Shown piece after piece: positions 5,270-36,380 of a stretch of DNA of 38,730 nt. Position 1 is the stretch's first letter, and each line of letters begins with the position of its first letter. The DNA is from Thermoplasmata archaeon. GTDB lineage: Archaea > Thermoplasmatota > Thermoplasmata > Thermoplasmatales > Thermoplasmataceae. The notes beneath the pieces are model-generated. The model did no database searches and was not told the origin of the DNA. It saw only the letters and a list, made by a program, of their open reading frames with translations. Where the stretch lies: NCBI GenBank assembly GCA_021809755.1, contig JAJZJZ010000009.1, positions 1 through 38,730 on the forward strand, written 5' to 3'. Made by a program: the position numbers and the translations under genes.

Positions 5270-5986
5270 ATGAAAAGGGACATAGTTGAAACAAGGCATG
5301 GAGAAATATCATTTTTAGACGGAGATGGAGAAATTCCCGTAATTCTTCTTCACGGATTAGGAGGAATGGGGAACGTCTTTTTTAAGCTTTCAGGGTGCCT
5401 TCCAAAGAAATACAGGCTAATATTTCCTGATCTTCTGGGTCATGGACATACAAGATCGAAATCAGAAAATATTACCGTACAAATGCAAAGAGAATCAATG
5501 GAAGATTTTATTGAAAATCTCAATCTGAAAGAGCCGGTTATAGGGGGACATTCATACGGAGGATGGGTTGCACTGAACTATGCAACCTCTCATGAAGATA
5601 TTTCGGGATTGATATTAATAGGAAGCGCAGGTACCAATCCAACTCTTGCAACAGCAGGTGAATCAGAAATTGAAAAATTTTTGGATCAGGTTTTAGCAGT
5701 CAACAAAAACAATGACAGAGCAACAATGAGAAATATTATAATGAATAATAGCAGAGACGATATGAAAATCGGAAACAATCTCTTAAGGAACATCCAAATT
5801 CCAACACTCATTCTTTGGGGGTCTGATGATCCAAGAATTCCATTGGAATATGGCGTCAAATTATCAAAGGAAATCAAAAATGCCAAAATGCATATTATTG
5901 ATGGCGGGGGGCACAATATTCATTATAGCCACTATGAAGAAGTTTGTACAAGTATAAGTGAGTTCTTGGTTCCTTTATTCTCATAA
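5270..5986 (+). CDS. alpha/beta hydrolase (esterase/lipase-like)
   Basis: Soluble serine hydrolase of 238 residues. It has an oxyanion-hole segment LLHGLGG near 26-32, the nucleophile elbow GHSYGG with Ser95, an acid in WGSDDPRIP (Asp187), and catalytic His215 in GGGHNIHY, so the Ser-Asp-His triad is complete. The short lid region (about 125-165) and overall pattern resemble monoacylglycerol-lipase, C-C hydrolase and carboxylesterase members. The substrate cannot be deduced. The start is ATG 5270 with a TTTGATTTATTG element about 24 bases upstream, consistent with a leaderless message. It is transcribed away from ppdK and is not in an obvious operon. Confidence 0.88.
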   Translation: MKRDIVETRHGEISFLDGDGEIPVILLHGLGGMGNVFFKLSGCLPKKYRLIFPDLLGHGHTRSKSENITVQMQRESMEDFIENLNLKEPVIGGHSYGGWVALNYATSHEDISGLILIGSAGTNPTLATAGESEIEKFLDQVLAVNKNNDRATMRNIIMNNSRDDMKIGNNLLRNIQIPTLILWGSDDPRIPLEYGVKLSKEIKNAKMHIIDGGGHNIHYSHYEEVCTSISEFLVPLFS

Positions 5987-6092
5987 CAATTTTCTTTATG
6001 GACTCACATTTATTCTAAATTCATATTCAGGAACTTGAAAAGGCCACGATATCAATTTGAGAAATGAAAAATTGATTTTCCACTTTAATATC

Positions 6093-6860
6093 TTACTTTT
6101 TTATAAATAAATCATAAGAACCCGGGTCCTCTTCTAACCTCTTTTTTCTCATTTCCCGGACTTGTTCCCAGTCAAATTCCACAATTAGGTTTGAGGATTG
6201 GGTTGCAGTAGTTGTGCTGAGCTTTGCTCCAAACTTATATGGAAATGGAAAGGAAGCAATTGATTCCCCCATGAATACTTCCGAGGAGGAATTCACAGAT
6301 ATAATTCCAATTCTGTTCTCCAAAGACCTTGCTTTAACATATAGATGCCACATATCATGAAAATTTTCAACAATGAGTGCTGGATTTATTATTAGGTCAC
6401 ATCCTTTATGAGCCAATATTCTTGAGTAGTAAGGAAAGTCGATATCATAACATATTGCTATTCCTATCTTTATCTCATTAAACTGGAAGACATTTATCTG
6501 TTTCCCACCAGTAACTCTCGACCTTTCATTGAGGAACGGTGAGATTTTCTCCTGCCATCCCATGATTTTTCCGTCAAGAATGAATGGAGAACGGTTTGTG
6601 ATTTTATTCTCACTTTCAACGAGGAATGATCCTGGAACGATGCATAATTTATTGTCTTTGGATATCTGTAGCAATCTTTCTATAATTAAGGAAAATTTTT
6701 CGTTTTCATTAGTTATGGTATTAGAAATCCAGCGTTCTGGAAATACTACAACCTTATTTTCTAGTTTCACAACCTTCTGCAAGGCATCCTCAAGAAGATT
6801 TAAGGCATCATCAATCTGCACAACGGGTAGCTGTATTCCTATTATTGAAATGTCCTTCAT
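6093..6860 (-). CDS. nitrilase-superfamily carbon-nitrogen hydrolase
   Basis: Predicted amidase of 255 residues. The three catalytic residues of the family are visible: Glu42 in VVFPERW, Lys105 in WQEKISPF, and Cys137 in GIAICYDIDFP. The length is typical of stand-alone omega-amidase-like branches. It could hydrolyse a small amide; the natural substrate is not apparent. The ATG lies only 2 bases after the coaBC stop, and a GGGG run about 10 bases upstream can act as a ribosome-binding site, so it is probably the last gene of a thioesterase-coaBC-amidase operon. This links it by context to coenzyme A metabolism (pantetheine or a related amide is a natural but untested idea). A vanin-type pantetheinase would be expected to be longer. 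Confidence 0.87.
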   Translation of the reverse strand: MKDISIIGIQLPVVQIDDALNLLEDALQKVVKLENKVVVFPERWISNTITNENEKFSLIIERLLQISKDNKLCIVPGSFLVESENKITNRSPFILDGKIMGWQEKISPFLNERSRVTGGKQINVFQFNEIKIGIAICYDIDFPYYSRILAHKGCDLIINPALIVENFHDMWHLYVKARSLENRIGIISVNSSSEVFMGESIASFPFPYKFGAKLSTTTATQSSNLIVEFDWEQVREMRKKRLEEDPGSYDLFIKK

Positions 6861-6862
6861 CG

Positions 6863-8032
6863 TTAAATTTCCCCTTGAAGCATATTAATCAATCTTTGAG
6901 CCATGGAACTTTTTGTCATTAACTCTTCCTTCTCTTCCCTTCCTCTTATAAGAAATTTATATTTTCCAGATTCAGATCCAATGATATTATCTTCAATGTA
7001 GTTAACCACCATGATTTCGTTCTTTTCTGCTGTTATATCTTTACCTCTATGGGTGAGCTTGAAACTGATAATTGGAATCTTGAATTGCTCCTTTATGATG
7101 TCTTTTAATTTTTTTGAAGGTTTCAGAACAAGGGAAAGATTCTTAGAACTGTCAATCTTTTCCTTTGATGCTTCGAATTCATAGTCCGACAACGCAGCTG
7201 AAACGATCACGCAGTCGTAGTGACTGTTTTTTAACTCGTCCATAGCTATGGAATAAAAATCTTTGTTAAGATAACAGGCCTTTAAAGTTACGTACGCAGG
7301 AAAAACCTCTGAGGCGTTTCCTATGAGAGTTATTTTGTTGAAACCCGATCTATATGCCCATCTGGAAAGCCAAATACCTGTAGTTCCAGAACTTCTATTC
7401 GTAATAGACCTCACTGGATCTATGGGTAATTCACTTCTCCCGCTTATGATTAAAATATTTTTTCCATTATTTTTCGTTCCTGATCTTATAATAGCATCTA
7501 TTATCTCCTCAGAATCCTGTATCTTTGCCTTTTCGTCTGCAATGATTGGTTCAAGTATCGTAACTCCTGCTTTTCTGAGCTTTTCTATGTTTTGGGTTAT
7601 GATGGTATTTCCATACATATCAAGATGCATTGCAGGCACGATAATTATTCTAATACCATGGCCAAGAGCATATGCAAACATTGTATCAATTATTCCATCC
7701 GCAATGCCAGAGGCAAATTTTCCTATCTGGTCATAAGTTGCAGGACATACAAGGAATACCTTTTTTTCCGGTTCATTCTCAAAAATATTGATATGTTCCA
7801 TCTTTCCAGACAAATTATCCAGAACATCAGCTTCTGCTGCCCATTGAATTGTCGTTTTGGTGATGAGTGTTAGTGAGGTCTGGCTCATAACAGGCAAAAC
7901 AGAAGCACCTGCTTCCCTGAGATCTCTAATAATATCTGGAACTCTGTATATTGAAATACTGGCTCCCATTGCGAATATAATAGTTTCCCCAACCAATGAC
8001 TTATCTTCCTTGAAAATTCCCATTCGGCTCAT
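6863..8032 (-). CDS. coaBC: phosphopantothenoylcysteine decarboxylase / phosphopantothenate-cysteine ligase
   Basis: Bifunctional coenzyme A biosynthesis flavoprotein (389 residues from the chosen start). The N-terminal CoaC half shows an FMN-binding flavoprotein fold: FAMGASISIYR near the start, a PASANT-like CPATYDQIGK, GIADGIIDTMFAYAL, and PAMHLDMY. The C-terminal CoaB half has the ISGRSELPIDPVRSITNRSSG segment and a SAALSDY motif. An in-frame extension to 8143 exists but would overlap the thioesterase gene by more than 100 bases. The ATG at 8032 is preferred because it sits 4 bases after that gene's stop, with a GGTGAT Shine-Dalgarno directly before it that also contains the stop. Translation is therefore probably coupled to the upstream gene. 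Confidence 0.92.
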   Translation of the reverse strand: MSRMGIFKEDKSLVGETIIFAMGASISIYRVPDIIRDLREAGASVLPVMSQTSLTLITKTTIQWAAEADVLDNLSGKMEHINIFENEPEKKVFLVCPATYDQIGKFASGIADGIIDTMFAYALGHGIRIIIVPAMHLDMYGNTIITQNIEKLRKAGVTILEPIIADEKAKIQDSEEIIDAIIRSGTKNNGKNILIISGRSELPIDPVRSITNRSSGTTGIWLSRWAYRSGFNKITLIGNASEVFPAYVTLKACYLNKDFYSIAMDELKNSHYDCVIVSAALSDYEFEASKEKIDSSKNLSLVLKPSKKLKDIIKEQFKIPIISFKLTHRGKDITAEKNEIMVVNYIEDNIIGSESGKYKFLIRGREEKEELMTKSSMAQRLINMLQGEI

Positions 8033-21898: not shown

Positions 21899-22139
21899 GG
21901 AAAAGAAATCACATTAATGAGATTATTCATTCATTTTAGTATTTATTGGAAATTTCATTAAATGTTAAACCAAGATATCTAAAGGATTAGAGGAAAAAAT
22001 ATGTCGCTTCCAATAGATTTAATTATACTGACTAATATTTAAGCAGTCAAAAGTGCAACAAAGCTTTATATATATTCTTTATCAGCCATTCTGTTTGGCA
22101 ATAAAAAACGTATAAAAGAAGAAGAATTGCTCGAGGAAG
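21899..22139. other. upstream region of the 22-26 kb gene cluster
   Basis: AT-rich. It holds a strong TATA-like run at 22065-22076, a second box GTATAAAAG at 22110-22118, and a coding-like purine-rich stretch at 22088-22144 that is in frame with the next gene but separated from it by a TAG. A tiny frame of 13 codons (22001-22042) also lies in this frame, preceded by AGAGGA. I see no RNA gene. Confidence 0.45.
22065..22076 (+). promoter_or_regulatory. TATA box of the secreted-protein/ABC cluster
   Basis: TTTATATATATT preceded by a purine-rich CAACAAAG that fits a BRE. Transcription would begin near 22092-22098. A second candidate, GTATAAAAG (22110-22118), is about 26 bases before ATG 22140. 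Either could drive the five-gene cluster. Confidence 0.5.
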
Positions 22140-22174
22140 ATGTCTAGTTTGGGGACATATTTGTAGTCATAGGG

Positions 22175-22846
22175 TTGTTATTCTCACTTTTTGTCATTTT
22201 TCCATTCATTTTTTCGGCACAAAGTATTGGAACTACGGTTAATAACTCTGTTCACAATGGAAGAACTGTTGTTTCAGTAACCGCCACTAGTGAGGTCATG
22301 ACTAACAACATAGAAACTCAACTTGTTAGAAGTTCATGTCCAACAGAAAGTTATACTTTCGGCTTGGCATTTCATTATCATCATCATTGGTCTGCTTATC
22401 ACGGATTGTTCAGTGGCTGTGACTCTGGAACCTACACAATGGAATTTAAAGACATTATAGGGTTTTCTGCAGTTTTTCGTGAGAATATCATCTATTGTGC
22501 AAGTGAAAGTGGTTCTATAACTTGCAATAACGCAATTAGTGCCACTTCGCCAACAATAGCTGTAAGGACGGTACAGGAACCTAACAATCCTTCAATACCC
22601 ACTGAACTAGAAATGTTTCAATATTCAAACCTTATCATAATTGGTAATAATGGTGGTGAACCAACGGTTGATTTGTCAGGCGTTGTCTATTTATTCGGGG
22701 CACCTGCAGTTACAGCCCAATGGAGTCCAAGCCTAGCAACTTTTAGTGGAGAGTTGTCATTGGCATGGATGCATAGCGCAAATTTCAACTATTATTGCCC
22801 TTATCCAATTGCCCCTGGAACAACATTGACAGGTTATGGAAGTTAA
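22175..22846 (+). CDS. secreted cysteine-containing protein, damaged or unusual N-terminus
   Basis: Function not recognised. The open frame gives 223 residues from TTG 22175: a hydrophobic stretch (LLFSLFVIFPFIF) that should be a signal peptide or anchor, then an extracellular-looking domain with five cysteines, a histidine cluster HYHHHW and one N-glycosylation sequon. There is no C-terminal membrane segment. The start is doubtful: TTG 22175 lies inside the hydrophobic segment and lacks a Shine-Dalgarno. ATG 22140, with GAGG just upstream, would give a good signal peptide only if one base were added near 22160-22163. Alternatively an in-frame TAG at 22145 interrupts a longer N-terminal tail. 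Thus it may be a pseudogene, carry a sequencing error, or use an odd start. It is the first gene of the cluster to 25.9 kb and a candidate substrate of the ABC transporter. Confidence 0.6.
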   Translation: MLFSLFVIFPFIFSAQSIGTTVNNSVHNGRTVVSVTATSEVMTNNIETQLVRSSCPTESYTFGLAFHYHHHWSAYHGLFSGCDSGTYTMEFKDIIGFSAVFRENIIYCASESGSITCNNAISATSPTIAVRTVQEPNNPSIPTELEMFQYSNLIIIGNNGGEPTVDLSGVVYLFGAPAVTAQWSPSLATFSGELSLAWMHSANFNYYCPYPIAPGTTLTGYGS

Positions 22847-22877
22847 GAATAAATAACTTAAAGGATTGAGGCTAGAA

Positions 22878-23735
22878 ATGAAATTAAAAACATTTATCAC
22901 TCTCTTTATGACTATAATAGCACTTTTATCCATACTAATAACATTTCTTCCTCTTATGGAGGAATCTTATTCATTGAGAAATGCATTAACAGAGCCTAAT
23001 GAGAAAGGTGCATGCCTTAAGTTTCAATTTTATGATCCTTCACTCTCTGTTTTAGGGGTGGAGCATAATGGTACATGTGCACCAATAGGGGGAATAATAT
23101 ACCTGAAGGGCGAAGGGAATCACTATACTATTACCGCAGATTTGGATAATATGTGGGCAAACTATAGTAATCAGAGTAGCTTATTCATAGGATCTTTCCT
23201 CATTTATCCCCACAAAATAACATCAGGTGAGATTGCAAATGTAAACGGAATTGAAGGAGTATTTAAAGAACAAACATCATGTCTCCTTTGTCCTGAAATT
23301 GACAATGTATCCACAAGATATTATCCATATATAATTTCCAAAACTTCTGGGCCTGATTTATTTTTGCTTCCAACTTCCAGCGAAGGAGTAGTGTACGATG
23401 GGTCTGGTTGCTTTAATCAAACGAAATCAGTTAATTTTTTTAAGGACTTATATGGGCCCCTAGGAATTTCATTGAATTTCAGACCAGGAATTGTTCTGAA
23501 TTTTCAGTTAGTGAAGTCTAATATCAAATTTACTTCATTGGATGATTATTATTACATTGATCAAAACACATCTATAGTGAGTTTGCTCATTGTTTTTTCA
23601 GCGGTTTTTTTGGTTTTAGTGATACAACGAATGAAAACCAAAAGGAAGTACATTACGAAATCTGATATTCTAAAGAATAAACATCAAAAAAATCTGAGGG
23701 GAATAGTGAGGAAGAAGAATGAAGGAAAGAAATGA
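22878..23735 (+). CDS. membrane-anchored ectodomain protein of the ABC cluster
   Basis: Not recognised as a known family. From ATG 22878 (GAGG six bases upstream; the TTG at 22866 is rejected) it has 285 residues. Topology: an N-terminal membrane segment (TFITLFMTIIALLSILITF), an ectodomain of about 200 residues with five cysteines including a CLLC pair, and several N-glycosylation sequons (HNGT, NYSN, NQSS, DNVS, FNQT, QNTS). A C-terminal membrane segment (IVSLLIVFSAVFLVLVI) and a very basic cytosolic tail of about 45 residues follow. The same plan recurs in the last gene of the cluster. The 3' end overlaps the ATPase gene by 17 bases, so they are co-translated. It may be a surface subunit or accessory factor of the transporter. 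Confidence 0.75.
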   Translation: MKLKTFITLFMTIIALLSILITFLPLMEESYSLRNALTEPNEKGACLKFQFYDPSLSVLGVEHNGTCAPIGGIIYLKGEGNHYTITADLDNMWANYSNQSSLFIGSFLIYPHKITSGEIANVNGIEGVFKEQTSCLLCPEIDNVSTRYYPYIISKTSGPDLFLLPTSSEGVVYDGSGCFNQTKSVNFFKDLYGPLGISLNFRPGIVLNFQLVKSNIKFTSLDDYYYIDQNTSIVSLLIVFSAVFLVLVIQRMKTKRKYITKSDILKNKHQKNLRGIVRKKNEGKK

Positions 23736-24585
23736 ATCTAACGCATGGTTGAAAGTGGAAAATTGCATAAAGAAATATGGATCAGTTACAGCACTTGATT
23801 CTGTCTCTTTTTCAGCAGGAAGAGGGGTAACGATATTGCATGGAAGGAATGGTTCCGGAAAGAGCACTATAATATCAATTTTGGAAGGTCTATCTCCTAC
23901 GGATGAAGGAAAAATATCAGTCATTGGTTATGATCCAATGAAAAACCCTAAAAAAGTAATGGAGAATGTGGCATTTCTCCCAGAAAGACCACAGGTCTTT
24001 GGCGCCAATATAGTTGGGGATTTTCTGTATTGGTACGGAGAAATAAATCATTGTGATTATAATGATTTAGAACGATTACTGGAATATTTTGATCTTCGAA
24101 ATCTGATCAAGAGTAAATTCAGTAATCTGAGTAGTGGAGAAAAACAGTTAATAGTCTTAAGTGTCATATTATCTTCGAAGAAAAAGGCCTATGTTCTTGA
24201 TGAACCCAATGCAAATGTTGATTCTGTAAGAAGAATGCAGATTGCCATGGAAATTGAGAAAAAAGCAAGAACAGGGGCTTCTCTCTTAGTTACAACTCAC
24301 ATGCTTGATGACCTACTTCCAATAGCCGATTCTATGATCCAAATCAAAGGTGGGAGAATAAAAAAAATACTTAGCCGAAATGATATAAAGGAAAATACAA
24401 ACTTAACTGTTAGAATTTGGATGTCCAATGAACAGTCCTTCCAAAATCTGGCTGATTTTGATATAACTGTTAACAAGGATATCGTAGATATAAGAGGCGC
24501 TACTGTTTCAAAGATTTTAGAAGCATTAACACCAGAACAAAAGGAAAATATAATCAGTATTAACTCGGTTCCCGAGATGATCTGA
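23719..24585 (+). CDS. ABC transporter ATP-binding protein
   Basis: Cytosolic ATPase of 288 residues. Walker A is GRNGSGKST (42-50), the Q-loop region reads AFLPERPQVFG with PERP in place of the usual glutamine, the signature is LSSGEKQ (137-143), Walker B is AYVLDEP (Asp161, Glu162), and the switch His194 is in TTHMLDD. The PERP-type Q-loop and layout resemble exporter ATPases of the NosF/GldA/multidrug (CcmA-like) type, not importers; no binding-protein gene is nearby. About 70 C-terminal residues form an extra domain. It shares a one-base stop/start overlap with the permease gene, with which it should form a 2+2 transporter. Confidence 0.92.
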   Translation: MKERNESNAWLKVENCIKKYGSVTALDSVSFSAGRGVTILHGRNGSGKSTIISILEGLSPTDEGKISVIGYDPMKNPKKVMENVAFLPERPQVFGANIVGDFLYWYGEINHCDYNDLERLLEYFDLRNLIKSKFSNLSSGEKQLIVLSVILSSKKKAYVLDEPNANVDSVRRMQIAMEIEKKARTGASLLVTTHMLDDLLPIADSMIQIKGGRIKKILSRNDIKENTNLTVRIWMSNEQSFQNLADFDITVNKDIVDIRGATVSKILEALTPEQKENIISINSVPEMI

Positions 24586-25310
24586 TGAAATTATTACAGT
24601 TAAAGTATGTGCTGAATGAGACGGACCCATTTTATATAAGGGAACTGCTAATGGCCTCTTTCTTCTATCTTGTTGTAAGTTCATATGTAAGTTCACTAGA
24701 CTATTCTGCCGTTCCAGCTATTGATGTCTTTCTCCAGAATACTACATTCGCAGCGTTTACTATCCTAATTCTTTATGGCGCAATGCTCTCTGCTATTTTT
24801 GCCAGAGGGATCGAAAACGGTTCAACTGGCTTTTTGTTCACCACACCAATTAATAGAAAATTCCATATATTACTTTCAATGTTTGTTCAGGCGATTATTG
24901 GAGGCGCCATATTTCTTATTCCAATAGGATTTGTTTATTGGTTAACATTTTATGCACTCAATCTCTATGTTCTTGTAATAATTTATCTTGCAATTTTAGC
25001 GCTTATTCTGATTTATCTTTCATTCGGCTACCTTATTTCATCTATAACGAAAAGTGCAGTAGGGACTTTTATTCTGACGGCATTTTTCTTTCTGCAAATG
25101 AGTTCTGAATCAGCAAAGATCTTCAAGCATAATCTAACCGGGCAGTTTATCCTGTCAGGTCTTACAACAATGAATTTGAATTCCCCATTTGGTTCAAAGG
25201 GAGCTGGTTATGTCTTTGATGCCTTAGTTTTTGCCTTAATAATGTCGGTTACTGTCTCAACTGTTTGCTATTACCTTCTGATTAAAGGAAACATGAGGAG
25301 TGGGAGATAA
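24585..25310 (+). CDS. ABC transporter permease (ABC-2-like)
   Basis: Hydrophobic protein of 241 residues with about six predicted membrane helices, beginning with a cytosolic segment (LKYVLNETDPFYIRELLMA). The helix pattern and the short loop FARGIENGSTGFLFTTPI after the second helix resemble ABC-2/NosY-type exporter permeases. It starts within the ATPase stop (ATGA overlap) and its own stop overlaps the next start (TAATG), so all three are translationally coupled. The substrate is unknown; the secreted cysteine proteins on either side are the obvious candidates. Confidence 0.82.
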   Translation: MKLLQLKYVLNETDPFYIRELLMASFFYLVVSSYVSSLDYSAVPAIDVFLQNTTFAAFTILILYGAMLSAIFARGIENGSTGFLFTTPINRKFHILLSMFVQAIIGGAIFLIPIGFVYWLTFYALNLYVLVIIYLAILALILIYLSFGYLISSITKSAVGTFILTAFFFLQMSSESAKIFKHNLTGQFILSGLTTMNLNSPFGSKGAGYVFDALVFALIMSVTVSTVCYYLLIKGNMRSGR

Positions 25311-25942
25311 TGCTTAAAAAACTATTTCATATAGTACTTTTCATAGTTGCATTCTTATCCATTTTTTCATTCTATGCTTACGGAGAGATTACCCAGTCCA
25401 CGCATAATTTCAAGACTCAAAATTTTGCAGTAAATGTATGTAACACAAATGAAAAGAACACATTAATATTATCAAAAACAGTTTGTTGCATAACAACACT
25501 AGGGAACGGATTGAATATATCTTATGTGGGAGCAAATCCATCTTTTCCGAAACAATTCAATGTGTCAGGCGTAACTTATTTTATAAATATATTCAAGGGT
25601 AATTCTACAATATACGACAATTTATCATTCCAGGGAAGCAGTAATATCCAATATTTATGTTATCAGCATGGTGCTGGAATGTACCAAATATCAACTTATG
25701 TCGTAGTCGACACCAACAATTCTTCCGCAATATCTCATATATCATCTATTACTTACAAAGCGACGGCACTTCTTGTTTCCAGACCTGCAAACCCAACTGA
25801 ACTAATCTATCCGGGAATCGTATTTGGAGTTGTTGCTGTAGTTGTTTTTATACTATCAAGAATCTACGGGGAAGATACTAAATATGTTCCTGAACGTCTT
25901 CTCCATCAGAAGCAAAACTTGAAGCGGATAAGGAGAACATAG
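25310..25942 (+). CDS. second membrane-anchored ectodomain protein of the ABC cluster
   Basis: Function unknown. It has 210 residues: an N-terminal hydrophobic segment (LFHIVLFIVAFLSIFSFYAYG), an ectodomain of about 140 residues with four cysteines (VNVCNTN, TVCCITT, YLCYQH) and sequons NISY, NVSG, NSTI, NLSF and NSSA, then a C-terminal membrane helix (IYPGIVFGVVAVVVFIL) and a basic tail ending KQNLKRIRRT. The topology matches the protein at 22878-23735, though I see no clear sequence similarity, so these may be two subunits or distant relatives. The start is ATG 25310 overlapping the permease stop. It closes the cluster; 68 bases then separate it from the TPR gene. Confidence 0.75.
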   Translation: MLKKLFHIVLFIVAFLSIFSFYAYGEITQSTHNFKTQNFAVNVCNTNEKNTLILSKTVCCITTLGNGLNISYVGANPSFPKQFNVSGVTYFINIFKGNSTIYDNLSFQGSSNIQYLCYQHGAGMYQISTYVVVDTNNSSAISHISSITYKATALLVSRPANPTELIYPGIVFGVVAVVVFILSRIYGEDTKYVPERLLHQKQNLKRIRRT

Positions 25943-31656: not shown

Positions 31657-31680
31657 TAGAAACAATCAATCATGGACATA

Positions 31681-32421
31681 ATGACTGAACTTATCATCAA
31701 GAATCTAAGTGCAAGAGTTGAGGGGAAGGAAATCCTCAAGGATGTTAATCTTACCATAAGAGGCGGTGAAATTCATGCTCTAATGGGTCCTAATGGTGCA
31801 GGAAAAAGCACTTTGGGAAACGTTCTAATTGGGCACCCCAATTATGAGATAACAGGAGGATCAATAAAGCTTGATGGCGTTGAACTCGTAGGAAAATATC
31901 CTGAAGAAAGGGCAAGGGCAGGATTGTACCTGGCTTTTCAGAGTCCCGTTGCAATACCAGGAGTAAAATTATCTGCTTTTCTTAGAACTGCTTATAAAAA
32001 CCTTCATCCTGAAGAGAAACTTTCCGTAAACGATTTCTATAAACTTGTATCTTCCCATCTAAAGAAAGTTGGCCTTGACGAATCATTTATGTCAAGATCT
32101 GTCAATGACGGCTTTTCAGGTGGAGAGAGGAAAAGACTGGAAATACTTCAAATGGTCATATTAAGACCAAAGATCATTGTTCTCGATGAAATTGACTCAG
32201 GTCTGGATGTTGATGCACTGGGTCTTATATCAGATGAAATTCTGCAATTCTTCAGCGATCAGACAGCATTCCTCATAGTAACGCACTATCAGAGAATTCT
32301 GAAGAGAATAGACCCGCAGTTTGTTCATGTCTTAATGAATGGGAAAATTGCAAAGGAAGGAGACAGGGAACTGGCATTAAGGATTGAAAATGAAGGATAT
32401 GACTGGATAAGAGGTAATTAA
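31681..32421 (+). CDS. sufC: Fe-S assembly ATPase SufC
   Basis: ABC-type ATPase that drives the SufBCD scaffold (246 residues). Walker A is GPNGAGKS, the SufC-specific signature is SGGERKRLEILQM, and Walker B is KIIVLDEIDSGLD. The upstream in-frame ATG at 31672 is only 17 bases from the TATA box, whereas ATG 31681 is 26 away, so the latter is taken as a leaderless start. It is the first gene of the five-gene suf operon; sufB starts 1 base after its stop. Confidence 0.97.
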   Translation: MTELIIKNLSARVEGKEILKDVNLTIRGGEIHALMGPNGAGKSTLGNVLIGHPNYEITGGSIKLDGVELVGKYPEERARAGLYLAFQSPVAIPGVKLSAFLRTAYKNLHPEEKLSVNDFYKLVSSHLKKVGLDESFMSRSVNDGFSGGERKRLEILQMVILRPKIIVLDEIDSGLDVDALGLISDEILQFFSDQTAFLIVTHYQRILKRIDPQFVHVLMNGKIAKEGDRELALRIENEGYDWIRGN

Positions 32422-32422
32422 T

Positions 32423-33874
32423 ATGGAAGTACAAAACATGAGTAAAGATGAAGAAATAGAAAAACTGCTGGAAAGTGTAAAGAATATCACTTCAAAGAAA
32501 AGTGATTGGGAATTCAAAGATTCATTTAAACCGCAATATACGACAGGTAAAGGCCTAAATAAGAAGGTTGTTGAGGAAATTTCAGATATAAAGAATGAAC
32601 CGGACTGGATGAGAAGAATCAGGCTAAAGGCTTTGGAAATTTTTGAAGCCAAACCGGTACCAACATGGGGGCCAGATCTCTCTGGAATCGACTGGGAAAA
32701 TATATCATATTACAATAAACCTGGAGACAGTAATACGAACAGTTGGGATGATGTACCCGAGATGATTAAGGACACTTTCCAGAAACTGGGCATTCCAGAA
32801 ATGGAACAGAAATATCTGGCAGGGTCCGTAGCACAATATGAAAGTGAAGGAGTATATCACTCCCTTAGGAAAGTGTGGGAAGACAAAGGAGTAGTTTTCA
32901 TGGATCTGGACAGTGCCATAAGGGAGCATCCTGATCTCGTTAAACAATACTTCTGCAAGGCAGTACCTATAACGGACAACAAGTTTGCAGCGCTAAATGG
33001 AGCTGTATGGAGTGGTGGATCATTTCTATATGTGCCAAAGGGTGTGCATATTGACATGCCACTTCAGACATATTTCAGGATGAATAATGAGGGTACAGGT
33101 CAGTTTGAACATACCATAGTGGTGGCAGACGAGGGCTCCAGTGTTCACTACATAGAAGGATGCACAGCTCCAAGATGGGACAAGAACTCACTTCACAGTG
33201 CAATAGTGGAGATATACGTCAACAAGAATGCAAAGGCAAGATATACAAGTGTTCAGAACTGGTCAAAGAGTGTTTACAACATGCCTACCAAGAGGGCATG
33301 GGTAGAGGAAAACGGTCAGATGGAATGGGTTGGTGGATCATTGGGTTCTAAGGTAACAATGCTTTATCCTTCATCATATCTAAGGGGTGCACATGCATCA
33401 GCTTCAAACCTAAACATTTCCCTTGCAGGACCAGGCACAGTTAAGGATACAGGCGCAAAGGCACTTCACTTTGCCCCATATACGACAAGTAAAATTGTTG
33501 CCAAGAGTATAAGTATAGAGGACGGAAAGGCAATTTACAGAGGTTTGCTCAGAATAAATAAGGGAGCGATAGAATCCAAGAGTCATGTACAGTGCGATGC
33601 CCTTCTCATAAACGACGAATCAGCTTCCTATACATTCCCACATGATGAAATATATGAGCCAACTGCAACCTTTGGTCATGAAGCGAGTGTCGGAAAAATT
33701 GGTACTGAAGAGTTAACTTATCTGAGGTCAAGAGGACTTTCTGAGGATGAAGCAAGTTCGATGATAGTACTTGGTTTCCTGGATGATGTAATGAGAGAAA
33801 TACCCATGGAATTTGCCATTGAGATGAACAGACTCATTAAGATGGAAATGTCCAAGATGGGCGCAGTAGGATGA
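32423..33874 (+). CDS. sufB: Fe-S cluster assembly scaffold SufB
   Basis: Core scaffold subunit of the SufBC2D complex (483 residues). Recognisable blocks are FMDLDSAIREHPDLVKQYF, SGGSFLYVPKGVHIDMPLQTYFRMN, GQFEHTIVVADEGSSVHYIEGCTAP and SHVQCDALLINDESASYTFP; the last contains the conserved cysteine implicated in cluster assembly. It ends in an ELTYLRSRGLSEDEAS segment shared with SufD. ATG 32423 has GAGGT 7 bases upstream, within the end of sufC, so translation is coupled. Confidence 0.98.
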   Translation: MEVQNMSKDEEIEKLLESVKNITSKKSDWEFKDSFKPQYTTGKGLNKKVVEEISDIKNEPDWMRRIRLKALEIFEAKPVPTWGPDLSGIDWENISYYNKPGDSNTNSWDDVPEMIKDTFQKLGIPEMEQKYLAGSVAQYESEGVYHSLRKVWEDKGVVFMDLDSAIREHPDLVKQYFCKAVPITDNKFAALNGAVWSGGSFLYVPKGVHIDMPLQTYFRMNNEGTGQFEHTIVVADEGSSVHYIEGCTAPRWDKNSLHSAIVEIYVNKNAKARYTSVQNWSKSVYNMPTKRAWVEENGQMEWVGGSLGSKVTMLYPSSYLRGAHASASNLNISLAGPGTVKDTGAKALHFAPYTTSKIVAKSISIEDGKAIYRGLLRINKGAIESKSHVQCDALLINDESASYTFPHDEIYEPTATFGHEASVGKIGTEELTYLRSRGLSEDEASSMIVLGFLDDVMREIPMEFAIEMNRLIKMEMSKMGAVG

Positions 33875-33880
33875 TATTCC

Positions 33881-35107
33881 ATGGAAGCCTACTCAGAAAT
33901 TCTCAAATCAAAAATCAGTGATCCATCTTTCGATTACAGGAAGGAATCCATGTTGCGATTCCTGAAATCACCCGTAAGAGATTATAAGGAGAGTCCTACA
34001 GTAAAAGATTACGTGGAAGTTACTGACCTAGAACTGATCAGAATGGCCACTGGTAACTACTCCGCAAGCAGAACAGACCAACAAAATTCTAGAGCAGATA
34101 TAATTGTTTCTGGTAATGCTTTCATTATGAGGAAGGGAAAATCTGCTCAATTTGAAGTAGATCATCTATCGGATGCTCTCTCTAATTCTTCACAAATACG
34201 GAATAAGGTCGAGTCATTTTTTGGAAATGAAAGGGAAGAGCATCTTATCAATTCATCATGGCAGGGAGGTTTATTTATAAAAACTCAATCAGATATATCT
34301 CTATCCATAAGCATAGAAACATCAATCAGGGCATCAGAATCAGGGTCACAGAAGGATTTTGTTTGGATCGGAAGAAATACAAAATTGGTACTCTCTGATA
34401 TTAGGACAAGTGAAGGTTCAGGTAACGGAGTCCAGGGAAGAAATATTTATTTTTACCTTGAAGATGGGGCAAATCTGGATTACCACTATATGCAGGACAA
34501 GGCAGATGGGGTATTTGACATTACGTTTATTAGAACATTTGGAGAAAAGAACACACTTGGAACAATATATCATATAAATCATGGAGCCGGAAAGGTTCTC
34601 TTTCAGAACGAATCAAATCAGATGGGTGATCAATCAGATTACAAGGTTTTCGGAGTAAGTTTCAGCTCAGGGAAGCAGAAGATAGACATAAGGGATAGCA
34701 GTTTTCAGGTTGGAAAACACACAAATGCTGATATTCACGTTAGAGGTGTTGTCACAGGCGAAAGTTCAACTATTCATCGCGGCAACATTGATATTGAACT
34801 TGAAAGTACTAAATCAACTGGATTTTATGATTCAAGAATCGTTCTTCTTTCTAAGCTTGGATATGCAAATTCAAAGCCTGCTCTAATGATAAAAAACAAC
34901 GACACCCGATCCAAGCATGGATCGGCAATAAGTTCCATAGACAAAGAAGAGCTAACTTATATTAGGAGCAGAGGAATATCAGAGAAGGACGCAAAATCTA
35001 TGATTTCTGCTGGTTTTGTAGGCTCGATGATAGAAAGGGCAAATAATACAAAATTCACGGAAATGGTGGATAGATTTGCCCACGAGCTGATAATAGATGA
35101 ATTTTGA
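33881..35107 (+). CDS. sufD: Fe-S assembly protein SufD
   Basis: SufB paralogue and partner in SufBC2D (408 residues). The beta-helix core includes SFSSGKQKIDIRDSSFQVGKH and STIHRGNIDIELES. The C-terminus ELTYIRSRGISEKDAKSMIS closely matches SufB's. It lacks the SufB cysteine block, which supports the D assignment. It starts 6 bases after sufB's stop with AGGATGA just before, and overlaps sufS by 11 bases. Confidence 0.93.
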   Translation: MEAYSEILKSKISDPSFDYRKESMLRFLKSPVRDYKESPTVKDYVEVTDLELIRMATGNYSASRTDQQNSRADIIVSGNAFIMRKGKSAQFEVDHLSDALSNSSQIRNKVESFFGNEREEHLINSSWQGGLFIKTQSDISLSISIETSIRASESGSQKDFVWIGRNTKLVLSDIRTSEGSGNGVQGRNIYFYLEDGANLDYHYMQDKADGVFDITFIRTFGEKNTLGTIYHINHGAGKVLFQNESNQMGDQSDYKVFGVSFSSGKQKIDIRDSSFQVGKHTNADIHVRGVVTGESSTIHRGNIDIELESTKSTGFYDSRIVLLSKLGYANSKPALMIKNNDTRSKHGSAISSIDKEELTYIRSRGISEKDAKSMISAGFVGSMIERANNTKFTEMVDRFAHELIIDEF

Positions 35108-36380
35108 CGAGGTAAGGGAACATTTTCCTATCTTCAAAAAATTAGATAAAGAAGGAATCATCTATCTGGACAATGCTTCAACAACGCAGAAGCCATACGA
35201 AGTAATAAATGCCGTTGTGGATTTTTATGAAAATCATTGCAGCAATGTGCATAGAGGAGTATACAGATTGGGTGAGGAAGCAACCGAGATGTTCAATCAT
35301 TCCAGAGAGAACATTGGAAATTTCATTGGAGCCAAGGACAGGGAAATAGTTTTTGTGAGAAACACAACTGAAGCACTGAATCTTCTTGCTTATTCTCTTG
35401 GCAGCAAGTTGCAGGAAGGCGATGAAATAATTCTGAGCAACAGTGAACATCATTCCAATATTGTTCCATGGCAGATGTTGAGCGAAAGAAAGAAAGTGAA
35501 GTTAAGGTTCTTAAACTCCAGACATGATGAACCAATATCTCCGGAGGAAGTTTCCAATTTGATATCTAGGAAAACAAAGATTGTCTCTTTAACAGAATGC
35601 TCAAACATATTAGGCAACATCAATGATATGAAACCTATCTCAAAAATAGCACATGATGCAGGTGCAATAATGATAGTAGACGGAGCTCAGAGCGTACCGC
35701 ACATGCCAGTCAACGCCAAGGATATGAATTGCGACTTTCTTGCATTTTCAGGTCATAAAATGATGGGGCCATCGGGTATAGGATGCCTGTATGGAAAGGA
35801 AGAAGCACTTGAGGAACTTCCCCCTTTCATGGGTGGAGGGGAAATGATAAGGACAGTCACAAAGGCAGGTTTCACTTGTGAAGACATACCTATAAAATTT
35901 GAAGCGGGAACTCCAAATATAGAGGGTGCCATTGGATTCTCGGCGGCAGTAGATTTCCTCAGGGATTTGGGAATGGAAAACGTGAGGAATCATGAAAAGG
36001 ATCTAATAGCTTATACTCTGAAAATGGAAGAAAATAGTGGTATAAAGGATCTAATCTCATATGGAACCAGGAACATTGAGAACAGAGCCGGCATCTATGC
36101 TTTCAATATTGGAGAAATACCAAAATTTGATAAAGAAAATATCAGTTCAGAAAACTTGTCTGTAAAAGTTCACGCAATCCATCCACATGATCTCTCTTCT
36201 TTGGCAGACAGAACATACGGAGTTGAATTGAGATCAGGGCATCACTGTGCCATGCCAATGACGGAAGATCTGGGGGTATCAGCCACAACCAGGGCATCAT
36301 ATTATGTTTATAATACACGCGAAGATGTGGAAAAATTGTTTGAGGCGTTAAGTGCAAGCATAAAGAGGTTCGGATTTTGA
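35097..36380 (+). CDS. sufS: cysteine desulfurase SufS
   Basis: PLP-dependent enzyme supplying sulfur from cysteine for Fe-S clusters (427 residues). It begins FPIFKKLDKEGIIYLDNASTTQKP. Other markers are HRGVYRLGEEAT, SEHHSNIVPWQ, the PLP Lys221 in FSGHKMMGPSG, and the catalytic Cys384 in RSGHHCAMP, all of the SufS (group II) type. The start lies inside sufD. The partner that accepts its sulfur is probably the SufU-like protein encoded next, since no sufE is present here. Confidence 0.97.
   Translation: MNFDEVREHFPIFKKLDKEGIIYLDNASTTQKPYEVINAVVDFYENHCSNVHRGVYRLGEEATEMFNHSRENIGNFIGAKDREIVFVRNTTEALNLLAYSLGSKLQEGDEIILSNSEHHSNIVPWQMLSERKKVKLRFLNSRHDEPISPEEVSNLISRKTKIVSLTECSNILGNINDMKPISKIAHDAGAIMIVDGAQSVPHMPVNAKDMNCDFLAFSGHKMMGPSGIGCLYGKEEALEELPPFMGGGEMIRTVTKAGFTCEDIPIKFEAGTPNIEGAIGFSAAVDFLRDLGMENVRNHEKDLIAYTLKMEENSGIKDLISYGTRNIENRAGIYAFNIGEIPKFDKENISSENLSVKVHAIHPHDLSSLADRTYGVELRSGHHCAMPMTEDLGVSATTRASYYVYNTREDVEKLFEALSASIKRFGF

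What the first reader, a model, noticed from the sequence alone, without database searches (positions are those of the whole stretch)
22065..25942. Five-gene cluster of cysteine-rich surface proteins around an ABC exporter, of unknown function
Seen directly: three proteins with N-terminal hydrophobic segments and 4-5 cysteines each, two of them with a matching C-terminal membrane helix and basic tail and many N-glycosylation sequons. They enclose an ABC ATPase and permease. Genes two to five overlap by 1-17 bases, so they are made together. Known: exporter ABC pairs of this type (NosFY-like, bacteriocin-immunity or surface-assembly transporters) often sit with the proteins they serve. Inference: this is one secretion, surface-assembly or metal/redox-handling system; I recognise none of the three ectodomain families.
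Basis: partly seen in the sequence, partly recalled or inferred. Interest (0 to 1): 0.7.

Follow-up and report, generated by a model that had tools for sequence, protein, structure and literature searches.

The report
Orphan five-gene archaeal exporter cassette
Acid-loving archaea of the order Thermoplasmatales share, and repeatedly lose, an undescribed five-gene kit made of one exported protein, two surface-anchored glycoproteins and an ABC pump; in this genome the exported-protein gene is broken while the rest is intact, a pattern that resembles a lost antimicrobial with its immunity retained, although the function is untested.

Summary
The cluster is real and more than local. The order A-B-ATPase(C)-permease(D)-E recurs on one strand in about 29 cassettes with complete B-E genes, across many Thermoplasmatales genera (B in 35 of 117 order genomes at E<=0.01; other families rare and weak; nothing outside the family in a 390-genome phylum sample). 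The five genes co-diverge (Mantel r 0.84-0.95) and evolve under purifying selection. A, B and E match no family in Pfam and no PDB sequence usefully.

'Cysteine-rich' is not a family trait (0-11 Cys), although ectodomain Cys counts co-vary. And gene A of this window is broken: an in-frame TAG at 22145-22147 cuts homologous coding sequence (19.3 bits with the part before it, 1.2 without), and no ATG/GTG start precedes it. Gene A is likewise broken or missing in 9 of 29 cassettes whose B-E are intact, by different lesions; no cassette lacks exactly one of B-E.

Most likely reading (about 0.4): A is an exported effector, perhaps an archaeocin, and B-E capture and expel it, as NisI/NisFEG do. Main rival: exporter-assisted assembly of A as a surface protein. 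Metal or redox handling is disfavoured. A conserved system of orphan families; function unproven.

The parts
22065..22075 (+).
   Evidence: Sequence TTTATATATAT; several intact relatives carry a TATATA-type element about 25-45 nt before the ATG of gene A. Inference from consensus only.
22100..22144 (+). Remnant coding sequence of the gene A N-terminus (NKKRIKEEELLEEDV), conserved acidic motif before the membrane helix
   Evidence: N-terminal profile of 14 relatives: 19.3 bits with this part included, 1.2 bits without it; genome search reads the gene A match through the TAG from model position 3
22145..22147 (+). In-frame TAG stop inside gene A
22148..22846 (+). Rest of gene A: membrane helix and extracytoplasmic domain, 5 Cys; annotated ORF would start at TTG 22175
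   Evidence: Profile match E 9e-33; no Pfam family
22810..22869 (+). Shifted-frame peptide CPWNNIDRLWKLRINNLKD, possible original C-terminal helix of gene A (a second lesion); weak
   Evidence: Resembles relatives' C-termini by eye, but a C-terminal profile did not pick it out
22878..23735 (+). Gene B: double-anchored ectodomain protein, N-glycosylation sequons, 5 Cys
   Evidence: Orphan family, alignment A2; profile match E 3e-63
23719..24585 (+). Gene C: ABC ATPase with Glu at the Q-loop position, LSxGE signature and DEPNxN Walker B region
   Evidence: PF00005 E 7.5e-19; alignment A4; motif table
24585..25310 (+). Gene D: ABC-2 type permease, about six helices
   Evidence: PF01061 E 0.0014, below cut-off; 4 of 16 relatives match ABC2_membrane_2, best E 9.8e-8
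25310..25942 (+). Gene E: double-anchored ectodomain protein, strongest sequon enrichment, 4 Cys
   Evidence: Orphan family, alignment A3; sequon counts

Best explanation
A five-gene Thermoplasmatales operon. A is an effector protein inserted by a signal-anchor helix and displayed or released outside the cell (shown: architecture; inferred: release and killing). B, C, D and E form the partner machine: two glycosylated ectodomain proteins anchored at both ends (B, E) around an ABC-2 pump (C, D). Inferred mechanism: B and E bind A-type proteins at the cell surface and CD expels them from the membrane, so that B-E gives self-immunity (as NisI plus NisFEG do for nisin) and may also help export. 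Cells that lose A but keep B-E would be immune non-producers; the window's genome would be one.
For: A alone is broken or absent in 9 of 29 cassettes with intact B-E: TAG (window), TAA, frameshifts, transposase insertions, deletions; no cassette lacks exactly one of B-E. By gene length alone A would take about 18% of single losses, so 9 of 9 has a chance of about 2e-7 (own arithmetic; fewer independent events would weaken it). Patchy distribution, several cassette types in one genome, tree mixing genera. Intact genes stay under purifying selection, including B-E of A-less L028. B and E are sequon-rich surface proteins, A is not. Some loci keep only A-B or B. Immunity by surface binding protein plus ABC pump is established for nisin (PMC8538875), and ABC immunity without its bacteriocin is known in wild populations (PMC10598978).
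Against: No activity data. A is no more variable than B, D or E, so there is no sign of an arms race. All A-less cassettes sit at tips, so they may simply be decaying; my three-way estimate suggests about two-fold higher dN/dS on the A-less L028 branch than on the A-intact L068 branch. No homology of A to any known toxin or archaeocin was found, and SulA/SulB could not be compared. Some lesions could be assembly errors in draft genomes.
Confidence: 0.4

Rival explanations
1. Surface-assembly or maturation exporter: A is the client (a surface or adhesive protein), B and E are ectodomain chaperones, and CD supplies energy for release or assembly, comparable in logic to NosDFY or GldAFG.
For: Co-divergence of all five genes; conserved N-terminal motif and helix of A; co-varying ectodomain Cys counts suggest contact between A, B and E.
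Against: B-E kept intact without A in 9 of 29 cassettes; orphan B genes and A-B pairs without the pump.
Confidence: 0.3
2. ABC-2 exporter for a lipid, drug or other small molecule with two ectodomain adaptors, in which A is a dispensable accessory or regulator.
For: The ATPase is nearest to generic drug-efflux and GldA models; A is dispensable in many genomes.
Against: A is conserved under purifying selection and co-diverges with the rest; no known efflux family matched beyond generic scores.
Confidence: 0.18
3. Metal or redox handling (NosFY-like copper-protein maturation).
For: Cys in the three ectodomains of this window and correlated Cys counts; such permeases are annotated NosY in related genomes (PMC10354927).
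Against: No conserved Cys or His column in A, B or E; cassettes such as L026, L028, L029 and L068 have none or almost none.
Confidence: 0.05
4. Only for the window: gene A is not broken; translation starts at TTG 22175, or the TAG is a sequencing error or is read through.
For: Open frame from 22148 to 22846; L031 and L033 have naturally short, signal-like N-termini; the assembly is a draft (86% complete).
Against: Homology extends upstream of the TAG; no ATG/GTG start; independent lesions of the same gene in other cassettes.
Confidence: 0.25

Closest known systems
Lantibiotic immunity NisI + NisFEG (and SpaI + SpaFEG)
   Same: Surface-anchored binding protein plus ABC pump beside an exported protein; Glu at the ATPase Q-loop position (recalled as a LanFEG trait, not verified; not specific, since another ABC protein of this genome has it).
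   Different: A is about 20-25 kDa rather than a modified peptide; two double-anchored ectodomain proteins instead of a lipoprotein; no sequence family shared beyond a generic ATPase.
Enterocin AS-48/MR10 EFGH immunity transporter
   Same: ABC transporter plus accessory membrane component next to a bacteriocin; also found without bacteriocin production (PMC10598978).
   Different: Gram-positive system; no detectable homology tested beyond generic ABC families.
Sulfolobicins (SulA, SulB, SulC) of Sulfolobus
   Same: Archaeal, membrane-associated antimicrobial proteins of about 20-22 kDa (PMC5733018); a truncated sulA is reported from S. islandicus (PMC3718332).
   Different: No ABC cassette is described in the text read; sequence comparison could not be made here.
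NosDFY and GldAFG type ABC-2 systems
   Same: ATPase plus ABC-2 permease working with exported or double-anchored partner proteins.
   Different: No conserved metal ligands; B and E match no Pfam family, so no NosD or GldG domain was detected.

Membership tests
ABC-2 type exporter | ABC ATPase domain with Walker A, signature and Walker B | tested here: met
   PF00005 E 7.5e-19; motifs GxNGxGKST, LSxGE, DEPN; the signature departs from LSGGQ
ABC-2 type exporter | ABC-2 membrane domain | tested here: inconclusive
   Window permease below the Pfam cut-off (18.6 against 26.9 bits); some relatives match ABC2_membrane_2, best E 9.8e-8
Lantibiotic immunity (LanI + LanFEG) | Neighbouring exported antimicrobial and a demonstrated protective effect | not testable with these tools
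   Needs an activity assay
Lantibiotic immunity (LanI + LanFEG) | ATPase passes the curated cut-off of the lantibiotic protection model TIGR03740 | tested here: not met
   77.4 bits against a cut-off of 309.75
NosFY-type metalloprotein maturation | Conserved metal-binding residues in exported partner proteins | tested here: not met
   No invariant Cys or His columns in A, B or E; intact cassettes without ectodomain Cys
Sulfolobicin | Sequence similarity of A to SulA or SulB | not tested
   No sulfolobicin sequence could be obtained; the primary paper is not held
Known anti-phage defence system | PADLOC match beyond a generic ATPase | tested here: not met
   Only generic ATPase matches for C; none for A, B, D or E

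The most novel reading that the evidence does not exclude
An undescribed archaeal interference system of Thermoplasmatales: a signal-anchored killer protein (A, about 20-25 kDa) with a four-protein immunity complex of two double-anchored glycoproteins and an ABC pump (B-E), moving between genera as cassettes and leaving immune non-producers such as this genome.
Probability: 0.35. Interest if true: 0.78.

Novelty: new variant of a known kind. Interest (0 to 1): 0.56.

Why it matters
Little is known of how archaea compete with one another, and Thermoplasmatales include some of the most acidophilic organisms known. A compact five-gene system, repeatedly gained and lost and built around three orphan surface-protein families, gives a defined and testable candidate for archaeal antagonism, or otherwise a new exporter-linked surface system. 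It also suggests that the NosY/CcmA labels usually given to such genes can mislead.

Tried and rejected
Plasmids with the permease: none. PHROGs with B: none. PDB sequence searches: nothing meaningful; the single Alba hit for gene A (E 0.009, a cytosolic DNA-binding protein) was judged chance. AlphaFold models of E (two sequences) and A (one) reached mean pLDDT 43 and 34, so no fold search was run; relatives found by the genome search are not among the sequences the prediction tool permits and were not submitted. B and E resemble each other only at the first helix, A and B not at all. Arms-race diversification of A: tested, not seen. C-terminal frameshift of the window's gene A: suggestive by eye, not significant.

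Full report
What was checked. ORFs and sequence at 21.8-26.2 kb confirm five + strand genes: A (remnant, to 22846), B (ATG 22878 to 23735), C (23719-24585), D (24585-25310), E (25310-25942), with overlaps of 17, 1 and 1 nt. C is a clear ABC ATPase, D a weak ABC-2 permease, and A, B and E have no Pfam family. The same holds when every family member is scanned, apart from isolated weak matches of single members. PDB sequence searches give nothing usable.

A conserved cassette. A permease search of 61 relatives found the first homologous loci, and their surroundings showed the same five genes in the same order. ATPase homologues led to more. Profile searches over 117 genomes of the order found B in 35 genomes (E<=0.01), E in 29, A in 24 and D in 24 (E<=0.001); the weakest of these hits are doubtful. 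A 390-genome phylum sample gave hits only in the window's family. In the order search a few weak B hits lie in other families, one of them (L090, G076) with a full five-gene arrangement. Profile annotation of all loci, with reading by eye where the profile was too weak (L077, L082, L086, L090), gave 29 cassettes with complete B, C, D and E, the window included.

It is one unit. Pairwise distances of the five genes correlate at r 0.84-0.95, with 0 of 500 permutations as high. dN/dS is 0.10-0.41 for all five genes in the informative pairs; L031/L032 is too close to be informative. The ATPase tree mixes genera, and one genome (G016) holds four cassettes in different parts of the tree, so cassettes have been exchanged or differentially lost. 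In the window's own genus the block Xer, GGPP synthase, RNase HII, TPR protein, helicase is syntenic. The cassette lies between RNase HII and TPR here; only an E remnant survives there in G003 and an E tail in G001; none was found there in G002, which has a different cassette about 10 kb away on the same contig.

Gene A is broken here and often elsewhere. The gene A profile match in the window covers 22118-22795 with a TAG inside. A profile of the family's N-termini scores the window at 19.3 bits when the residues before the TAG are included and 1.2 bits without them, so the stop interrupts sequence that was once coding. No ATG or GTG start lies in frame between the TATA-like element and the helix. 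In other cassettes with intact B-E, A is cut by a TAA (L020), truncated (L019), frameshifted (L024; L030, whose near relative L068 is intact), split by a transposase (L029, L073) or absent (L028, L070). That is 9 of 29 including the window; no cassette lacks exactly one of B, C, D or E. If breakage fell by gene length, A would take about 18%, and nine of nine would have a chance of about 2e-7. The lesions differ in kind, so most are independent events, but all lie at tips of the tree. Searches that start from D or E found no complete cassette lacking B, so the bias of having searched from B is small.

What the proteins look like. A: a cytoplasmic N-terminus of about 10-40 residues with a conserved acidic motif, a membrane helix, often a Gly-rich linker, a domain of roughly 180 residues and, in many members, a short Trp-led C-terminal helix; a subset (L031, L033) has a short signal-like N-terminus instead. 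B and E: helix, ectodomain, helix, basic tail. Sequons are enriched 1.6-fold in B and 2.5-fold in E ectodomains against composition-preserving shuffles and not in A. Cys counts of the three ectodomains co-vary (rho 0.65-0.76, partly shared ancestry) and do not co-vary with those of C or D. The ATPase has Glu at the Q-loop position in 23 of 23 members and an LSxGE signature. From memory the Glu is a feature of lantibiotic-immunity ATPases, but another ABC protein of this genome also has it, so it is only compatible evidence.

Interpretation. Shown: a conserved five-gene, operon-like unit; the architecture of its parts; selective, repeated loss of A; constraint on B-E. Inferred: A is an exported effector that is costly or dispensable, and B-E has value without it, as immunity would. 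The closest working analogy is NisI plus NisFEG (PMC8538875) and ABC immunity transmitted without its bacteriocin (PMC10598978). Against it: A is no more variable than its partners, A-less cassettes are all young, and a three-way estimate from the values suggests partly relaxed constraint in A-less L028. The main rival is exporter-assisted assembly of A as a surface protein. Metal handling is disfavoured because no ligand is conserved.

Novelty. Full-text searches found no paper describing such a cassette. The one Thermoplasmatales genome paper found mentions seven NosY copies and many CcmA genes and reports that its own database searches found no bacteriocin locus (PMC10354927). The pump is of a known kind and the three surface families are new, so I rate it a new variant of a known kind rather than categorically new.

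Noticed in passing
L194:3644-4152 (G003) and L195:2834-2974 (G001): At the window's cassette site two same-genus genomes keep only decayed pieces of gene E between RNase HII and the TPR gene, so the cassette is older than the split and was lost there.
   Followed up: partly
L069 / L100 (G023, JAMCUH010000033.1), about 1-2.2 kb: Gene B is followed by a partial second copy of its C-terminal part, and the ATPase holds an internal repeat of about 45 residues (YWFSSLNGTGTERIIDY... twice); tandem duplication or assembly artefact.
   Followed up: no
L087 (G091), 5684-6922: A 402-residue protein beside an isolated B gene begins with an A-like N-terminal motif and helix (E 3e-6) but has a different, larger body; possibly the A N-terminus serves as a portable signal.
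   Followed up: no
L079 (G097), L074 (G089), L088 (G080), L089 (G096): Loci with A-B only or B only, without the ABC pump: possible minimal or orphan forms.
   Followed up: partly
L029 (G019) and L073 (G089), gene A: Transposase genes lie inside gene A in two independent cassettes while B-E stay intact.
   Followed up: partly
window 31672-36380: Probable Suf (iron-sulfur assembly) genes in the same window; in same-genus G002 the cassette lies directly beside suf-like genes (L021:1229-4667).
   Followed up: no
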